Origin: an uncultured Bacteroidales bacterium
GTDB taxonomy: Bacteria; Bacteroidota; Bacteroidia; Bacteroidales; Muribaculaceae
Assembly (NCBI GenBank): GCA_902776955.1
Contig: CACYSG010000013.1
Coordinates: 1 to 42,991 of the forward strand
Direction: 5' to 3'
DNA: 42,991 bases
The notes beneath the pieces were generated by a model. The model did not search any database. It was not told where the DNA came from and saw only the letters and a list, made by a program, of their open reading frames with translations. Shown piece after piece: positions 2,326 through 38,634 of the stretch (within the stretch, counting starts at the first letter, position 1; each line of letters starts with the position of its first letter). Made by a program: the position numbers and the translations under genes.

Positions 2326-2430
2326 TTAATTTAGTTGATAGTCCAGCGTTTCTAGTCACTAGTTGGCAATCGCTTCCTAGAGACCCAAAACCAGAAACGA
2401 GGGGCTAGAAACCATAAACTAGTTAAATCC
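2326..2430 (+). repeat. Degenerate CTAG-rich intergenic sequence before mmdB
   Basis: The 105 bases between the biotin carrier and the beta subunit contain several imperfect copies of motifs such as TTTCTAGTCACTAG, CTAGAAACC and AAACTAG. These resemble the heptamer units GAAACTA and GGGACTA that form clean arrays at 27272-27320 and 37946-37994. Here the periodicity is mostly lost, so this is called a decayed copy. It ends about 7 bases before the mmdB start codon. Confidence 0.4.
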
Positions 2431-3585
2431 ATGGTACTGCTTGACAATTTCCTGTTCACTAAGTTGTTGGACTTCTGGCATTTTACCGGATTCTACAACT
2501 TTGAATGGACCAACCTGATTATGATTGTGGTGGGATTGTTCTTCATCTTCCTCGCAATCAAATATGACTTTGAACCCATGCTTCTCGTGCCCATCGGCTT
2601 CGGTATCCTGATTGGCAACATTCCTTTCCAGCCGGGTAACGAGATCGGCATCTATGAGGACGGTTCGGTGCTCAACATCCTATATCAAGGTGTGAGAAAC
2701 GGCTGGTACCCGCCACTCATCTTCCTGGGCATCGGCGCGATGACCGACTTTAGCGCCTTGCTGGCCAATCCCAAGCTCATGCTTGTGGGTGCAGCGGCAC
2801 AGTTCGGTATCTTCGGCGCCTACATGATTGCCCTCTTCCTGGGATTCATGCCCGACCAGGCAGGTGCGATTGCCATCATCGGTGGTGCCGATGGCCCCAC
2901 CGCCATCTTCCTGTCGTCAAAACTGGCGCCCAACCTGATGGGTGCGATTGCCGTGAGTGCCTACAGTTACATGGCGCTCGTGCCGGTGATCCAGCCGCCC
3001 ATCATGCGCCTGCTGACGACCAAGAAAGAGCGCACGATGCGCATGAAGCCCGCCCGCAAGGTCAGCCAGCTGGAGAAGATCGTTTTCCCCATCTTCGGCT
3101 TGATCCTCACCTGCTTCGTGGTGCCTTCGGCTATCCCCCTGCTGGGTATGCTGTTCTTCGGCAACCTGTTGCGTGAGAGTGGCGTGACCAAGCGTCTGGC
3201 CAACACCGCCAGCAACGCCATGACCGACATTGTGACCATCCTCCTGGGTATGACCGTGGGTGCCTCCACTCAGGCATCGCAGTTCCTGACCAAGGAGACC
3301 TTGTTCATCTTCTTCCTCGGTTTCTGCGCCTTCATCATCGCCACCTGCTCGGGTGTGCTGTTCGTGAAGATCTTCAACCTCATCTTGCCCAAGAGCAAGA
3401 AGTTGAACCCGCTCATCGGTAATGCCGGCGTATCGGCAGTGCCCATGGCAGCACGCATCAGCAACGACCAGGGCCTCAAGGCCGATCCCAGCAACTACCT
3501 GCTCATGCACGCCATGGGTCCCAACGTGGCCGGCGTGATTGGTTCGGCAGTTGCCGCAGGTGTCCTCCTGGGCTTCCTGGGATAA
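2431..3585 (+). CDS. mmdB: Sodium-translocating decarboxylase beta subunit
   Basis: This is the integral membrane subunit that decarboxylates carboxybiotin and couples the reaction to Na+ export. At 384 residues it fits the OadB/MmdB family (about 375-430). It is strongly hydrophobic with about nine membrane segments. The family signature IIGGADGPTAIFLSSKLAP is at about residues 149-167; its Asp is the residue implicated in sodium and proton handling in the Klebsiella OadB literature. A second conserved stretch, GNAGVSAVPMAARISNDQG, is at about 330-348. The ATG was chosen because it gives the normal N-terminus. A strong terminator at 3630-3680 closes the operon. No pyruvate or oxaloacetate-specific alpha subunit is seen, so methylmalonyl-CoA is the likeliest substrate. 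Confidence 0.94.
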   Translation: MVLLDNFLFTKLLDFWHFTGFYNFEWTNLIMIVVGLFFIFLAIKYDFEPMLLVPIGFGILIGNIPFQPGNEIGIYEDGSVLNILYQGVRNGWYPPLIFLGIGAMTDFSALLANPKLMLVGAAAQFGIFGAYMIALFLGFMPDQAGAIAIIGGADGPTAIFLSSKLAPNLMGAIAVSAYSYMALVPVIQPPIMRLLTTKKERTMRMKPARKVSQLEKIVFPIFGLILTCFVVPSAIPLLGMLFFGNLLRESGVTKRLANTASNAMTDIVTILLGMTVGASTQASQFLTKETLFIFFLGFCAFIIATCSGVLFVKIFNLILPKSKKLNPLIGNAGVSAVPMAARISNDQGLKADPSNYLLMHAMGPNVAGVIGSAVAAGVLLGFLG

Positions 3586-3613
3586 TAGACGTTAGACGTT
3601 AGACATTAGATAG
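3586..3613 (+). repeat. Four-unit heptamer tandem repeat
   Basis: Directly after the mmdB stop codon there are four consecutive 7-base units: TAGACGT, TAGACGT, TAGACAT and TAGATAG. Each unit begins with TAG. The array has the same 7-base period and TAG phasing as the arrays near 27.3 kb and 37.9 kb, although the other four bases differ. Confidence 0.8.
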
Positions 3614-7560: not shown

Positions 7561-8721
7561 TCAAAACAGGAACGTGTGGTACATCTGGGGGAAATACTGG
7601 CCTGCGGGAGCAAGAGCCACCTTCACCAGCTCATAGAAGATGAAGTACAGGTTCAGGAAGGCCATCACGGCAAACGGTATCCACTTGCGCTCGCGCCACA
7701 GGTAGACCAACGTATAGCACACCATCACCAGGAACGCCCCGCGCAGCAGGTCGCCCGGGCGCCTCAAGTAGAGCGTCGTGTTGGCAAACACATTGAGGAA
7801 GGCGATGTGCAATATCGAGAAGCGATAAAGTGCAGCGATGAAGGCGTCACCCTTGAACATGCGCATGATCGACGGATAATACCAGATGAACATCATGCAG
7901 GTGATGATCGGGAACAACCTCGCCGGGCCAATCCAGGTCCTGAACAGATACTCCAGATTATTGCTGGCGAACAGGCGATAGTAGTGGCCGTAGCCGAACA
8001 GGCTGGCAAACTCCCCTACCCGCTGGAATATCCACTGGATCCACTGCGGGAACTGACCCAAAACGGCACAGACCACCAACAAGGCGATCGGAACCCATTT
8101 CGACATGCGTGGCACGCGGATGAGCGGCACCAAATACAACGGAAGCAAGAGGAACGACATCCGGTGGATTGTCATGGCCAGCAGCGTCAACAGCAGGTAT
8201 ATCCAGAAGCGCCGACGCACAATCAGCTCGACCATGATGACAAAAAGGCACTCGATGACCGCCTGACGGATCGTATTCATCCATTGGATATAATAGGGAC
8301 CCAAAAAGATGCACAAGCCTATCCACGGCAAGAGTGCTTTGCGATGACGCAGGGCATAATAGAGCAAACAAATCTGGGCGGCGGCCCAAAATGCGAAGTA
8401 CAGGGCAAAATGAGCTCCGGCACGTCCCAGCGCATTGGTGATGAAGGCGAATCCTGGCTCGAAATCCTCGCGGGAGTACTCACCCAGTGACTGCATGCTC
8501 ACGTAGTAGCCGTAATACATGTTATAGTCCCATGCCGTGAGCCACCGCACCGACGACACCGCGACATAGAAGAGTATCGCCACCATGATTTCCCAGGAAT
8601 AGAAGGGCAGCTCTGCCCCACCCTTGGCTGGCGCCAGACGCTGCTCCCGCCGGTTTACAAGCCATCCCAATCCAGCCATCACGGCAGCAGAACCAGTATA
8701 GACAATCAGACTGAGAATCAT
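7561..8721 (-). CDS. EpsG-like polytopic membrane protein
   Basis: This 386-residue protein has about ten hydrophobic segments and fits the EpsG family, whose members are proposed polymerases or export factors in exopolysaccharide assembly. Typical features are the early region with SSVRWLTAWDYNMYYGYYVS (the V.Y..G.D...Y position), PGFAFITNALG, and a loop with WMNTIRQAVIECLFV, which matches the N.IRQ motif of the family. It starts 28 bases after the sprA stop and is probably co-transcribed with it. No glycosyltransferases or other capsule genes lie nearby, so it is an orphan EpsG and its role cannot be set from context. Confidence 0.75.
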   Translation of the reverse strand: MILSLIVYTGSAAVMAGLGWLVNRREQRLAPAKGGAELPFYSWEIMVAILFYVAVSSVRWLTAWDYNMYYGYYVSMQSLGEYSREDFEPGFAFITNALGRAGAHFALYFAFWAAAQICLLYYALRHRKALLPWIGLCIFLGPYYIQWMNTIRQAVIECLFVIMVELIVRRRFWIYLLLTLLAMTIHRMSFLLLPLYLVPLIRVPRMSKWVPIALLVVCAVLGQFPQWIQWIFQRVGEFASLFGYGHYYRLFASNNLEYLFRTWIGPARLFPIITCMMFIWYYPSIMRMFKGDAFIAALYRFSILHIAFLNVFANTTLYLRRPGDLLRGAFLVMVCYTLVYLWRERKWIPFAVMAFLNLYFIFYELVKVALAPAGQYFPQMYHTFLF

Positions 8722-27264: not shown

Positions 27265-27271
27265 TGTTTTT

Positions 27272-27320
27272 TAGTTTCTAGTCCTTAGTTTCTAGTCCCT
27301 AGTCCCTAGTTTCTAGTCCT
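27272..27320 (-). repeat. Seven-unit heptamer tandem array before rimM
   Basis: In plus reading the array is seven exact 7-base units: TAGTTTC, TAGTCCT, TAGTTTC, TAGTCCC, TAGTCCC, TAGTTTC, TAGTCCT. In the direction of transcription these are GGGACTA, AGGACTA and GAAACTA units. It fills nearly all of the gap between the DUF4290 stop (27327) and the rimM start (27264). The same units occur in opposite orientation at 37946-37994. Confidence 0.92.
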
Positions 27321-27326
27321 TGGTTT

Positions 27327-30437: not shown

Positions 30438-30935
30438 CTACTGAACAGGAGCAGGAGGATCTGTCTCAGGTGCTGAAGGTGCGGTAGCAGATGCTGAAGG
30501 TGCAGTCTTAGGTGCTGAAGGAGCAGTCGCAGATGCTGAAGGAGCACTCGCAGATGCTGGAGGAACATTCACAGGTTCTATGGGAACATTCACAGGATCT
30601 GGAGGACCGACAGGAATCGTCGGGATCTCTACAGGTTCATGAGGCTCTGATGCACCCATGCAACGGGGGAGCAGGAAGGCGCACGCTAATGCCACTATCG
30701 CTATAAGGACAACGTAGCGAAATGGGTAAATCATCCTGCCGATGAGGGTGGTCCTTATTCTGTCCCACTTATTGATATAAATATAAGTAACCTGTCTTGT
30801 GATCCCGTTAGCATCCGTTTCCAACCGACTCGATTCTGCGTAGCTGATGCCCAATGAATCCAAGTCACTCTTACAGGACGACAACTGGATGGAGTCCTCA
30901 CAAATCTTGTATCGATAATTGAAATGATCCGCCAT
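30438..30935 (-). CDS. Single-pass membrane protein with Ser/Ala/Pro repeat tail
   Basis: This 165-residue protein is unrecognised. Residues 1-65 are polar and probably cytosolic, with alternating basic and aromatic residues. One membrane helix lies at about 73-92 (YVVLIAIVALACAFLLPRCM). The remainder is an extended tail, first Pro/Val-rich (EIPTIPVGPPDPVNVPIEPV), then repeats of the APSASAT/APSAPKT type to the end. The tail is encoded by imperfect direct repeats of 15-21 bases (30465-30560), for example GATGCTGAAGGAGCA. There is no signal peptide, so the tail could be outside if the helix is a signal anchor. It precedes the DUF6056-like gene. Confidence 0.7.
   Translation of the reverse strand: MADHFNYRYKICEDSIQLSSCKSDLDSLGISYAESSRLETDANGITRQVTYIYINKWDRIRTTLIGRMIYPFRYVVLIAIVALACAFLLPRCMGASEPHEPVEIPTIPVGPPDPVNVPIEPVNVPPASASAPSASATAPSAPKTAPSASATAPSAPETDPPAPVQ
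30462..30562 (-). repeat. Imperfect tandem repeat encoding the Ser/Ala/Pro tail
   Basis: At least five imperfect copies of GATGCTGAAGGTGCAGT-like units (plus reading) follow each other inside the coding sequence. They keep the reading frame and encode ASAPSAxx repeats. Length polymorphism between strains would be expected. Confidence 0.75.
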
Positions 30936-34623: not shown

Positions 34624-36582
34624 ATGCCGAAGATAAAGAAGCTATATACGTTCATGCTGTCCAGGTTCCTGCCGAGGTTCCTGATGACCTTCTGTATCTG
34701 CTTGTTTATCGTCATCATGCAATTCTTGTGGCGATACATCGACGAGTTGGTGGGCAAGGGACTGAGCATCGACGTGGTGGCCGAGCTCTTCTTCTATGCG
34801 GCCCTGTCGATGGTGCCGTTGGCATTGCCGCTGAGTATCCTGCTGGCGGCGTTGATGACCTTCGGCGACCTGGGTGAGCACATCGAGCTGACGGCCCTCA
34901 AGTCGTCGGGCATCTCGTTGACGACCATCATGAAGCCGCTGGCCATCCTGATCACGCTGGTGTCCATCGGGGCGTTCTTCTTCCAGAATAACGTCTTGCC
35001 ACAGTCACAGGTGAAGATGTGGACCCTACTGTTCTCGATGCGACAAACGTCCCCCACGCTGGACATCCCCGAGGGCGCCGTCTATAGCCAGATTCCGGGT
35101 TACAACATCTTTGTGCAGCGCAACGACAAGGAGCGCGACATGCTCTATGGACTACTCATCTATGACGTTTCCCAGGGGTCGATGTATCCCAGGATCGTGG
35201 CGGCCGACTCTGGCCGGCTGAGCATGACCCAGGACAAGCAGCACCTGGTGCTGACGCTCTACAAGGGCTCGTGGTATGAGGAAATGAAGTCGGGAGGTGG
35301 CGTGAACGGCATGAGCGGCGACCTCTACCGCCGTGAGACCTTCCACGACAAGGAAATCATGATTCCCTATGACGCCAACTTCACCCGCATGGACGACGAG
35401 ACGATGAAGTCGCAATACGTCGGCAAAAACATCACCGAGCTACAGCAGACCATCGACTCGGTGCGGCTCAAGGTGGACTCGGCGGCGACGTTTGTTCTCA
35501 CCAAGTTACGCTCGCAGCCCGTGTGCGGCGTTCCCCAGCAGCGCTTCGTGCAACGCGACGGCAAACCCTCGATGGAGCCCGTTCCCGAGGTCACCCTCGA
35601 CAAACCTGTCGACCTCAACAAACTCATCAAGGAACTGCCCGAGCATGAGCAACAGAACATTGTCAACCAGGCGATGATGCGCACTACTGCGGCGATGCAG
35701 GACCTGCAATTCCAGGGATATACCATCAACGACGATAATTACGTGATTCGCCGCCACCAGATTGAGCTGATGAAGAAATTCACGCTCTCGCTGGCCTGCC
35801 TGATATTTTTCTTCATCGGTGCGCCGCTAGGAGCCATCATCCGCAAGGGTGGCTTCGGTATGCCTATTGTCATCTCGGTGCTGCTGTTTATCGTCTATTA
35901 CATCATCGACAACATGGGCTACAAACTTGCCCGCGACGGCCGCTGGGAGGTGTGGCAGGGCATGTGGCTCAGTTCGGCGGTCCTGCTGCCGCTGGGCGTA
36001 TTCCTGACGCACAAGGCCGTCAACGACTCGGCGGTGTTCAATCCCGACGTGTGGCTCAACTTCATCCGCCGCGTCACGGGTCTGCACCAGACGCGCAAAC
36101 TCGCGGCCAAGGAAGTTATCATCAACGAGGTCATCCCGGCCGAGGCACTCGAGCTCATCAACGGCCTCAAGGCATCTTGCCAGCAGCTGCTTGACCGCTA
36201 CCCCGGTCGCCAGCGATATCTGGAATACTGGCAGCAGGGATATGACAAGGCGGCCATCAAGGCGCTGGCCGAAGAGGTGGACCGCGTGGTCGATTACTTG
36301 TCCAACTCCCGCGACCAGATGGTACTCAACAAGGCCATGGACTATCCCGTCATTCGCCAGCTGCTGACCTATTCCCCGTCGGCTATTGTAGGCAAGGCGG
36401 CAGGCACAGCGGCAGCGGTGCTGTTCCCCATCGGTCTGCCCGTGTGGCTCATCGGCATGAGACACCAGGCTAACCTCAAGCGCGACATCCAGCTCACCGC
36501 GAAGACCTGCGACCAGCTGGTGGCCATCTTTAACGGCGACTATGACCGCGAGATGGAATATCGGGAATTGGATAAGAGTTAA
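34624..36582 (+). CDS. LptF/LptG-family lipopolysaccharide export permease
   Basis: This 652-residue inner-membrane protein belongs to the YjgP/YjgQ (LptF/LptG) family, which extracts LPS from the inner membrane with the LptB ATPase. It has the expected order: N-terminal membrane helices (FLMTFCICLFIVIMQFLWRYID, AALSMVPLALPLSILLAALM), the coupling region with DLGEHIELTALKSSGISL (about 83-100), a periplasmic beta domain (about 135-300), and C-terminal helices (CLIFFFIGAPLGAIIRKGGFGMPIVISVLLFIVYYIID). Residues from about 474 form a cytosolic extension absent from E. coli LptF/G (about 360 residues) but common in Bacteroidota. The ATG at 34624 was chosen because it follows a promoter and gives MPKIKKLYTFMLSRFL. 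The stop lies in a 14-base tandem repeat; ribBA follows 71 bases later. Confidence 0.93.
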   Translation: MPKIKKLYTFMLSRFLPRFLMTFCICLFIVIMQFLWRYIDELVGKGLSIDVVAELFFYAALSMVPLALPLSILLAALMTFGDLGEHIELTALKSSGISLTTIMKPLAILITLVSIGAFFFQNNVLPQSQVKMWTLLFSMRQTSPTLDIPEGAVYSQIPGYNIFVQRNDKERDMLYGLLIYDVSQGSMYPRIVAADSGRLSMTQDKQHLVLTLYKGSWYEEMKSGGGVNGMSGDLYRRETFHDKEIMIPYDANFTRMDDETMKSQYVGKNITELQQTIDSVRLKVDSAATFVLTKLRSQPVCGVPQQRFVQRDGKPSMEPVPEVTLDKPVDLNKLIKELPEHEQQNIVNQAMMRTTAAMQDLQFQGYTINDDNYVIRRHQIELMKKFTLSLACLIFFFIGAPLGAIIRKGGFGMPIVISVLLFIVYYIIDNMGYKLARDGRWEVWQGMWLSSAVLLPLGVFLTHKAVNDSAVFNPDVWLNFIRRVTGLHQTRKLAAKEVIINEVIPAEALELINGLKASCQQLLDRYPGRQRYLEYWQQGYDKAAIKALAEEVDRVVDYLSNSRDQMVLNKAMDYPVIRQLLTYSPSAIVGKAAGTAAAVLFPIGLPVWLIGMRHQANLKRDIQLTAKTCDQLVAIFNGDYDREMEYRELDKS

Positions 36583-36612
36583 TAGATAAGAGTTAATAGA
36601 TAAGAGTTAATA
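36571..36612 (+). repeat. Three-unit 14-base tandem repeat spanning a stop codon
   Basis: GATAAGAGTTAATA occurs three times in exact tandem (36571-36584, 36585-36598, 36599-36612). The first unit encodes the last three residues (Asp-Lys-Ser) and the stop of the LptF/G gene. Its period is twice seven. Confidence 0.9.
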
Positions 36613-36653
36613 GATTTTTTTTTAGACTAATCATCCTTCTATAAGATATCATT

Positions 36654-37868: not shown

Positions 37869-37873
37869 GCTTT

Positions 37874-37908
37874 TAGGAATTAGAAATTAGAAATTAGAAA
37901 TTAGAAGT
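37874..37908 (+). repeat. Five-unit heptamer array (TAGAAAT type)
   Basis: Units are TAGGAAT, TAGAAAT, TAGAAAT, TAGAAAT and TAGAAGT, starting 6 bases after the ribBA stop codon. The period is exactly seven bases and each unit begins with TAG. Confidence 0.9.
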
Positions 37909-37944
37909 TCTAGAGCATCTAGAATATCTAGATTATCTAGAGCA
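37909..37944 (+). repeat. Four-unit nonamer array (TCTAGA type)
   Basis: Units are TCTAGAGCA, TCTAGAATA, TCTAGATTA and TCTAGAGCA, directly abutting the heptamer arrays on both sides. Every unit contains the palindrome TCTAGA. Confidence 0.9.
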
Positions 37945-37945
37945 T

Positions 37946-37994
37946 CTAGGGACTAGGGACTAGGGACTAGGGACTAGAAACTAGGGACTAGAAA
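37946..37994 (+). repeat. Seven-unit heptamer array (CTAGGGA/CTAGAAA type)
   Basis: The units are four CTAGGGA followed by CTAGAAA, CTAGGGA and CTAGAAA. These are cyclic forms of the GGGACTA and GAAACTA units found in opposite orientation before rimM. The array ends 10 bases before the ATG of the HD hydrolase. Confidence 0.92.
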
Positions 37995-38004
37995 CTAAAA
38001 CACG

Positions 38005-38634
38005 ATGAGAGATTTCGACGAGATCAGGGTATTTGTTGAGCGGGAGATTGTTCCTCGCTACGACAATTTTGACGCGGGGCATGGTCGCGACCATGTCCAC
38101 ACGGTCATGACCCAAGCGCTGCAGCTGGCACAGCACTACCCCGAGGTGGACCCTTGCTTGCTGCTTGTGGCGGCAGCCTATCATGACCTGGGCCTGGCCT
38201 ACGGTCGCGAGCACCATCACACCCACAGTGCGCGCATCATCCGCGAGGATGAGCGCCTCAAGCAGTGGTTCAGCGACGAGGAAATCGGCATCATTGCCGA
38301 CGCCGCCGAGGACCACCGCGCATCCAGCGGCCACGAGCCGCGCACCATCTATGGCCGCATCGTCGCCGAGGCCGACCGCATCATCGACGGCGAGACCATC
38401 GTGCGCCGCGCCCTCCAGTACGGGATGTCGCATGAGCCGGGACTGGACCGTGAGGGGCAGTACCGTCGCCTGATGGAGCACATGCGTGAGAAATATGACT
38501 ACGGCGGCTACCTCAAGCTGTGGATACCCGAGAGCGACAACGCCAAGCGCCTCGAGCAGTTCCGCCAGACGCTGGCCGACGAGGCGGCCTTCCGTCAAAT
38601 GTTTGACAAAATCTTCGATACAATCAATCAATAA
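38005..38634 (+). CDS. HD-domain phosphohydrolase
   Basis: This 209-residue protein has a HD-type metal-dependent phosphohydrolase domain. Metal ligands can be seen in DAGHGRDHVHTVM (about 23-35, the first His region), AAAYHDLGLAY (His60-Asp61, the HD pair) and a later Asp in AEADRIIDGE. The middle stretch HHHTHSARIIRED (about 70-82) resembles HDIG-like and YedJ/YpgQ-type proteins. Such enzymes hydrolyse phosphate esters, often of nucleotides; the substrate is unknown. The heptamer arrays fill the 136 bases between ribBA and this gene. The endonuclease gene follows 10 bases downstream, so both are probably one transcript. Confidence 0.9.
   Translation: MRDFDEIRVFVEREIVPRYDNFDAGHGRDHVHTVMTQALQLAQHYPEVDPCLLLVAAAYHDLGLAYGREHHHTHSARIIREDERLKQWFSDEEIGIIADAAEDHRASSGHEPRTIYGRIVAEADRIIDGETIVRRALQYGMSHEPGLDREGQYRRLMEHMREKYDYGGYLKLWIPESDNAKRLEQFRQTLADEAAFRQMFDKIFDTINQ

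What the first reader, a model, noticed from the sequence alone, without database searches (positions are those of the whole stretch)
27272..27320. Heptamer tandem arrays that abut start codons inside operons
Exact 7-base arrays of the same two unit types (GGGACTA and GAAACTA) occur before rimM (seven units, 7 bases from the ATG) and, in opposite plus-strand orientation, before the HD hydrolase at 37946-37994 (seven units, 10 bases from the ATG). In both cases the array runs in the direction of transcription and fills the 5' untranslated gap. A decayed relative ends about 7 bases before mmdB (2326-2430). A 7-base period puts stop codons in all three frames, so changes in copy number would leave coding unchanged but alter leader length and structure. 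I infer a possible copy-number dial on translation of the downstream gene.
Basis: partly seen in the sequence, partly recalled or inferred. Interest (0 to 1): 0.72.

Follow-up and report, generated by a model that had tools for sequence, protein, structure and literature searches.

The report
Heptamer spacer arrays between operon genes
A group of gut and rumen bacteria fills many of the short gaps between genes of the same operon with small repeated DNA words that differ by whole copies between relatives; this resembles known bacterial repeats but has an unusually regular build whose purpose is not yet known.

Summary
The rimM array (27272-27320, minus) and the HD-gene array (37949-37997, plus) each have seven 7-mers and end 7 nt before the ATG. 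They belong to a genome-wide family: 96 exact hits, 0 in the reversed control. Of 67 arrays in stretches picked for arrays, 0 lie in predicted genes; 37 of 52 CTAG-type arrays lie between co-directional genes and point at the next start.

The copy-number dial is only partly supported. Array gaps of two sibling species often differ by whole units, but downstream genes are mostly housekeeping, and the unit is not conserved: at the rimM, HD and groES-groEL junctions other species carry other heptamers or none. What recurs is a build: YTAR core plus variable 3-nt spacer, AACTGA plus one variable base (both 7), or TCTAGA plus 3 nt (9).

My best reading is slippage-evolving arms of intercistronic foldback spacers. 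RNA pairing is supported in a genus subset and not in the home genome. Known relatives are TAACTGA repeats (MacGregor 2015) and GGGAATC repeats (Rehm 2015). New variant of a known kind.

The parts
27272..27320 (-). seven-unit RRRACTA array (CTAG type) in the DUF4290-rimM gap (27265-27326)
   Evidence: Pfam of neighbours
27265..27271 (-). 7-nt A-rich stretch between the array and the rimM ATG
   Evidence: A-rich start context
37873..37906 (+). left arm: TTAGAAA/TTAGGAA 7-mer array, 4 nt after the stop codon of the ribBA-like gene
   Evidence: Pfam
37909..37949 (+). centre: TCTAGA plus 3 nt, 9-mer array; the palindrome is constant within this array and the triplet varies
   Evidence: same pattern elsewhere in the genus
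37949..37997 (+). right arm: GGGACTA/GAAACTA array, seven units, 7 nt before the HD-gene ATG at 38005
2326..2430 (+). decayed two-armed heptamer element before the oxaloacetate decarboxylase beta (mmdB-like) gene; folds better than its shuffles, z -3.9
   Evidence: Pfam
3586..3610 (+). TAGACGT 7-mer array starting right after the stop codon of the gene ending at 3585
36571..36615 (+). 14-mer GATAAGAGTTAATA array (two heptamers) overlapping the end of the gene ending at 36582

Best explanation
The arrays are arms, or surviving half-arms, of a family of short non-coding foldback repeats that occupy gaps between genes of one operon. Shown: 7-mer units have a conserved core and a variable spacer (YTAR plus 3 nt, or AACTGA plus 1 nt), and a 9-mer kind (TCTAGA plus 3 nt) occurs with them; TTAG-type units lie towards the upstream stop codon and CTAA-type units towards the next start; relatives often differ by whole units; the unit word differs between sites and species; the start-proximal end merges into an A-rich start region of the kind Bacteroidota use instead of a Shine-Dalgarno sequence. 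Inferred: copies spread between sites (a shared unit order argues for copying), then change by replication slippage; in the transcript the cores of the two arms pair as a ladder of short helices separated by unpaired spacers, making a structured spacer that marks off cistrons and may affect mRNA processing or stability. I do not claim a tuned copy-number switch.
For: Periods 7/14 and 9/18 make up 32 of 35 intergenic arrays in 20 home-genome stretches chosen without regard to arrays; Markov shuffles gave 0. YTAR core: 25 of 27 arrays in those stretches plus the window (6.0 expected, highest of 2000 permutations 14) and 21 of 27 in genus rimM/HD loci (5.9 expected, highest 14); only 5 of 13 in genus 20-kb stretches (2.5 expected, highest 7), several of which are AACTGA/CAGTT words. 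Deviations from the array consensus fall in the spacer: 19.0% against 5.3% in the core (85 home arrays), 18.2% against 6.0% (42 genus arrays); AACTGA-N 27% at N against 0-10% in the core (15 arrays). Polarity TTAG left / CTAA right: Fisher p 2e-4 in both home and genus sets. Arms of one gap pair better than swapped arms in 13 genus gaps (-19.9 against -15.0 kcal/mol, p 0.005). 3x3 internal loops 65 against 8.2 in shuffles (home) and 23 against 4.4 (genus). Unit order AAA-GGA-GGA-AAA in 17 of 27 arrays (5.0 expected, highest of 5000 shuffles 13). Whole-unit differences. A frequency 0.76 at -3, -6, -12, -13 against 0.58-0.64 when the set is slid (33 starts), the positions reported for F. johnsoniae (PMC6847099, one results section read).
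Against: In the home genome 27 two-armed gaps pair no better with their own arm than with swapped arms (-13.3 against -14.0, p 0.67), and pair even better with the reverse complement of their right arm (-16.7); home and genus together (40 gaps) p 0.027. Many gaps have one arm only. The rimM array folds weakly (z -1.96). Over all home array gaps the fold is only moderately better than in gaps without arrays (median z -2.25 against -1.53) and the antisense strand does as well (-2.07). Array gaps leave as many unpaired exterior nucleotides as their shuffles, so the idea that the hairpin folds the gap away failed. 3x3 loops follow from tandem YTAR+3 units, so they are not independent proof. Core position 0 changes mostly T>A in the home genome (16 of 21), which does not preserve pairing; in the genus 8 of 13 changes there keep a pyrimidine. 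The constancy of TCTAGA rests on an exact search pattern; units flanking such arrays match it at 24-33 of 52 per position. No transcript data.
Confidence: 0.42

Rival explanations
1. Neutral satellites: heptamers arise and expand by polymerase slippage and spread by conversion or rare copying, survive only in gaps because stops and frameshifts exclude them from genes, and do nothing.
For: 0 of 67 arrays in predicted genes; unit turnover at the same junction and junctions with none; whole-unit differences; heptanucleotides are reported as the most abundant class of longer simple repeats in most genomes surveyed (PMC4679880 introduction, read, citing Mrazek 2007, which I did not see).
Against: Slippage alone does not predict a conserved core with a variable spacer or consistent left/right polarity.
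Confidence: 0.3
2. One reading: unit number sets leader length and structure and so dials translation of the downstream gene.
For: Arrays abut starts; unit number differs between relatives; precedent of hmw1A in Haemophilus influenzae, where more 7-bp repeats lower expression (PMC8262952, passages seen).
Against: Mostly housekeeping targets, no evident phase to the ATG, short arrays, species-specific words, some arrays at stop codons.
Confidence: 0.1
3. Stop-codon fence: the TAR in each unit places stops in all frames to catch readthrough or frameshifted ribosomes between cistrons.
For: Sense stop in 27 of 27 home arrays (18.0 expected), 25 of 27 in genus rimM/HD loci (17.7 expected) and 9 of 13 in genus 20-kb stretches (7.8 expected); core position 3 changes are A-G transitions in 57 of 59 (home) and 29 of 29 (genus).
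Against: Antisense stops are enriched too (25 of 27, 11.5 expected; 24 of 27, 11.5 expected; 8 of 13, 5.4 expected); CAGTT-type left arms in another genus member have no sense stop.
Confidence: 0.08
4. Tandem binding sites for an RNA- or DNA-binding protein, as MacGregor proposed for TAACTGA.
For: Conserved cores at fixed pitch; TCTAGA with variable triplets repeated in 47 of 61 genus genomes.
Against: Different words at the same junction in other species. No candidate protein was sought.
Confidence: 0.07
5. REP-like elements moved by a RAYT / Y1 transposase.
For: Y1_Tnp family over its cut-off in 54 of 61 genus genomes.
Against: No significant correlation of Y1_Tnp number with any of four array counts (Spearman 0.04 to 0.25, lowest p 0.053; 61 genomes for three words, 37 for the fourth).
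Confidence: 0.03

Closest known systems
TAACTGA heptamer direct repeats of Beggiatoaceae, Cyanobacteria and a few Bacteroidetes (MacGregor 2015, PMC4679880; abstract, introduction, sections 10 and 23 and further passages read)
   Same: 7-mer direct repeats, mostly intergenic and, in the main genome, mostly forward just before starts; one reverse set right after a stop in Flexibacter litoralis; no pattern in downstream gene function, some essential; indels mostly in 7-nt steps between two close strains; some sets split by related heptamers. The AACTGA-N word found in 29 of 61 genus genomes contains the same AACTGA.
   Different: Here several words per genome, a YTAR core with variable spacer, left/right polarity, composite 7-mer/9-mer gaps, and word turnover at orthologous junctions.
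GGGAATC / GGGGAYT heptamers of Xanthomonas and Nostoc (Rehm 2015, PMC4692102; passages and discussion read)
   Same: Mostly non-coding heptamers, often between the same genes in related species with length and sequence variation; genes spread over functional classes; function unknown.
   Different: Those prefer four units with G-tracts and form quadruplexes in vitro; here 1 of 41 exact home arrays has four consecutive GGG units.
hmw1A heptanucleotide repeats of Haemophilus influenzae (PMC8262952; passages seen)
   Same: 7-bp tandem repeats upstream of a gene; copy number changes.
   Different: Phase-variable adhesin loci at a promoter, 13-24 repeats in the constructs named in the passages; here many operon junctions with 2-8 units.
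REP / BIME intercistronic palindromes (recalled; PMC3733652 seen only in a search listing)
   Same: Dispersed intergenic foldback sequences.
   Different: Here arms are tandem short units, and numbers do not correlate with Y1 transposases.

Membership tests
TAACTGA-type heptamer repeats (MacGregor 2015) | TAACTGA unit | tested here: not met
   Home units are RRRACTA, TTAGRRA and others; the three-unit pattern AACTGANAACTGANAACTGA has 0 hits in the home genome but hits in 29 of 61 genus genomes
TAACTGA-type heptamer repeats (MacGregor 2015) | direct 7-mer repeats, intergenic, forward and close upstream of start codons | tested here: met
   37 of 52 CTAG arrays forward between co-directional genes, 30 of those 37 within 30 nt of the start
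G-quadruplex heptamers (Rehm 2015) | four or more G-tracts at 7-nt pitch | tested here: not met
   1 of 41 exact arrays of at least three units
phase-variable contingency repeat (hmw type) | copy number varies within a species and alters expression of a surface gene | tested here: inconclusive
   Differences between species and between repeats in one genome seen; strain variation and expression out of reach; genes mostly housekeeping
REP / RAYT elements | association with a Y1 (RAYT) transposase | tested here: inconclusive
   No significant correlation of numbers across genomes; adjacency to a Y1 gene not tested
described RNA families (Rfam 15) | match at the curated gathering score | tested here: not met
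   0 matches in the window; related loci not searched

The most novel reading that the evidence does not exclude
A genus-wide class of intercistronic RNA elements in which geometry, not sequence, is conserved: ladder hairpins built of self-complementary 4- or 6-nt cores at 7- or 9-nt pitch with unpaired variable spacers, re-made with a different word at the same operon junction in different species, and able to grow or shrink by one rung.
Probability: 0.25. Interest if true: 0.75.

Novelty: new variant of a known kind. Interest (0 to 1): 0.52.

Why it matters
Intergenic heptamer repeats have been noted in scattered bacteria, and the two papers read that describe them leave the function open. 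This genus offers many species with different words at the same housekeeping junctions (rimM, HD, groES-groEL), so slippage, selection for stops, protein binding and RNA pairing make different predictions that can be tested by comparison and with simple reporters. The core/spacer pattern would also explain the 7- and 9-nt pitches as core plus spacer (4+3, 6+1, 6+3).

Tried and rejected
Gap-bridging by hairpin: exterior nucleotides no fewer than in shuffles; dropped. RAYT mobility: no significant correlation. Arm complementarity as a general rule in the home genome: swapped arms pair as well; kept only for a subset. Array phase locked to the start codon: not seen. G-quadruplexes: 1 of 41 arrays. 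Rfam: none in the window. In those 80 loci 87 arrays lie outside long ORFs by a simple ORF rule; of 80 arrays with an upstream ORF, 38 start within 45 bp of its stop codon, or overlap it, on the same strand. I read this as independent origin; not tested. Literature: searches of the open-access library listed nothing closer than MacGregor 2015 and Rehm 2015; several listings were cut (for instance 20 of 878 papers, 8 of 1,032), so absence from print is not shown.

Limits: genes were called by a home-made hexamer scorer, so start sites and gap lengths can be wrong (one case corrected: the HD gap of the species in L234). Arrays come from the window and 40 stretches picked because they hold arrays; searches use stretches picked without regard to arrays, and adds the window and the rimM/HD loci; the gap sets pool both kinds. 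The nine gaps were chosen by eye.

Full report
What is there. The window lies in a 3.23-Mb draft genome (123 contigs, 89.7% complete). Four of six named records followed up lie in genomes with the same size and array counts as members of this genus; they are MAGs titled uncultured Bacteroidales (RUG13867, RUG12435, RUG11775) and Muribaculaceae (RGIG2290, goat duodenum) (the match by equal counts is my inference, and that RUG means rumen is recalled). The rimM array is 27272-27320 (minus) and the HD-gene array 37949-37997 (plus); both have seven units and end 7 nt before the ATG. In the rimM array two units are AGGACTA. The HD gap is a composite: stop codon, TTAGAAA 7-mers (37873-37906), TCTAGANNA 9-mers (37909-37949), GGGACTA/GAAACTA 7-mers, ATG. 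The gap before the mmdB-like gene is a decayed two-armed version.

Beyond chance. CTAGNNNCTAG: 10 in the window against 0.20 expected. GRRACTAGRRACTAG: 96 in the genome, 0 in the reversed control. YTAGRRAYTAGRRA: 223 against 1. In 20 home-genome stretches of 20 kb picked without regard to arrays, 35 intergenic tandem arrays had periods 7 or 14 (17), 9 or 18 (15) and other (3); Markov shuffles gave none; coding sequence (327 kb) gave 11 arrays over all periods, 1 of period 7. 15 of 157 co-directional gaps of at least 20 bp carry a 7/14 array and 11 a 9/18 array; in the genus sample 9 of 138 and 0; in the sample from other families of the order 1 of 76 and 1.

Position and orientation. In 41 stretches (the window and 40 picked because they hold arrays) there are 67 arrays, 0 inside predicted genes. 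Of 52 CTAG-type arrays 37 are forward and 8 reverse between co-directional genes, 3 lie between divergent genes, 2 between convergent genes, and 2 at contig ends. Of the 37 forward ones 28 are nearer the start than the upstream stop and 30 end within 30 nt of the start; of the 8 reverse ones 7 are nearer the stop. Of 11 forward TTAG-type arrays 10 are nearer the stop. TTAG words lie left and CTAA words right (home 21/6 and 4/15; genus 11/0 and 0/5).

Spread. CTAGRRACTAGRRA occurs in 18 of 61 genomes, home included; all 18 are among the 37 of the same genus, none among 24 from other families. In 61 genus genomes, home included, TTTAGRG arrays occur in 31, AACTGAN arrays in 29 (0 hits in the home genome) and TCTAGA-N3 arrays in 47. 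TCTAGA-N3 arrays occur in 3 of 295 genomes drawn from the order: the home genome, one with a single hit, and one of another family (G277) with 83. The CTAGRRA search covered 37 of the 61 genus genomes, so two counts rest on the other three words for the remaining 24: 36 of 61 have at least 10 hits of one word, and 11 show none.

Turnover at fixed junctions. DUF4290-rimM: 29 species compared (home included), arrays detected in 5 with different words, three with a 4-nt stop/start overlap. ribBA-HD: 22 compared, arrays in 12 (one weak), two with a 1-nt overlap. groES-groEL: 30 compared, arrays in 13 with several words. These sets are the best-matching loci of each search (30 given, of 56, 54 and 52 genomes with a hit), less loci lacking one of the two genes. 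Sibling species G036 and G061 (mean protein identity 93%): in 200 kb of each, 85 syntenic co-directional gaps, arrays in both for 10 and in one for 4; length differences 21, 7, 14, -7, 28, -14 (multiples of 7), 0, 0, and 15, 8, 8, -57, 61, 47 (the 14 is corrected, because the script had misplaced one start). One of four similar repeats in contig C4 has one unit fewer; paralogous gaps in C20 have the same length of array and differ in unit type.

Build of the unit. Units contain YTAR in 25 of 27 home arrays (6.0 expected) and 21 of 27 from genus rimM/HD loci (5.9 expected); in genus 20-kb stretches 5 of 13 (2.5 expected, highest permutation 7), where AACTGA/CAGTT words occur. Deviations concentrate in the spacer (19.0% against 5.3% home; 18.2% against 6.0% genus). 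In the home genome 97 TCTAGA spacers show 23 different triplets, with 14 of 71 neighbours equal against 6.6 expected, so both slippage and free spacer change seem at work; that TCTAGA itself is conserved was not tested without bias, and units flanking these arrays match it at only 24-33 of 52 per position. A shared order (AAA, GGA, GGA, AAA) occurs in 17 of 27 arrays of at least four units, highest of 5000 shuffles 13, which argues for copies rather than purely local births.

Structure. Of nine gaps chosen by eye, the HD gap, the groES-groEL gap and the two-armed gaps fold better than shuffles (z -4.8, -2.5, and -2.5 to -5.9), the rimM array hardly (-1.96). Without choice the effect is moderate: 66 home array gaps median z -2.25 (antisense -2.07), 100 gaps without arrays -1.53 (antisense -1.08). 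Gap ends pair better with each other than with other gaps' ends (home z -5.0, genus -3.0 and -3.6, other families -1.8), but this includes ordinary hairpins. Restricted to array arms, own pairing beats swapped in the genus (13 gaps, p 0.005) and not in the home genome (27 gaps, p 0.67), where left arms pair better still with the reverse complement of the right arm (-16.7 against -13.3 kcal/mol; in the genus -6.0 against -19.9); both sets together p 0.027. Hairpins do not shorten the unpaired path from stop to start. Pairing is therefore supported for some words (AACTGA/CAGTT; TTAGC/GGCTAA; full CTAG palindromes) and only possible for the TTAGAAA...CTAGGGA composites.

Start context. For 33 array-proximal starts A reaches 0.70-0.82 at -13, -12, -6 and -3; the mean at that set is 0.76 against 0.58-0.64 when slid. 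Over the last 25 nt, A is 0.58 before 35 array-proximal starts and 0.39 before 512 others. These are the positive positions in Flavobacterium johnsoniae (PMC6847099, one results section read). So the array end supplies or tolerates a good start region; array phase itself seems free.

Targets. Pfam on all 33 array-proximal downstream genes plus 5 window genes: among the 33 are RimM, HD hydrolase, lipoate/biotin ligase, SHMT, cobalamin enzymes, FecCD, LytB (IspH), PanD, RF-1, GroEL, DnaJ, ETF-alpha, CinA, FtsX/MacB, peptidases, and a few surface-linked ones (SusD, capsule-type PGA_cap, a glycosyltransferase); 4 of the 33 had no family. I see no contingency-gene theme; no enrichment test was run.

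Verdict. Real, ordered, patchily genus-wide, and a new variant of the intergenic heptamer repeats described by MacGregor (2015) and Rehm (2015). The dial is possible but not favoured; a foldback, slippage-evolving spacer is my first choice, with neutral satellites close behind.

Noticed in passing
window 37909-37949; also L261:2574-2642, L058:2907-2966: TCTAGA-N3 arrays with variable triplets; 12 of 26 home arrays (two or more units) have exactly five units; 47 of 61 genus genomes and one genome of another family with 83 hits (G277).
   Followed up: partly
L253:18029-18149, L251:1036-1076, L244:9750-9818: A second kind of 9-mer array (CCGTTATTT, CCGTTATCT, CTCCGTTAT) in longer gaps (348-627 bp), without YTAR cores.
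   Followed up: no
L033:10619-10810, L040:5824-5991, L234 and L341 gaps: G+C-rich hairpin-like stretches next to TTTAGAG arrays, recurring in several genus members.
   Followed up: no
L033:1992-2019, 2177-2197, 7639-7666, 7847-7874: Longer repeated blocks in contig C4, four copies, each with a CTAG array.
   Followed up: partly
L071-L150: GRRACTA arrays in many phyla, often starting at or just after a stop codon; one array in a Pseudomaricurvus record (L146) has 94 units.
   Followed up: partly
window 30456-30564: 21/42-bp tandem repeat inside an ORF (30438-30935, minus); not examined.
   Followed up: no
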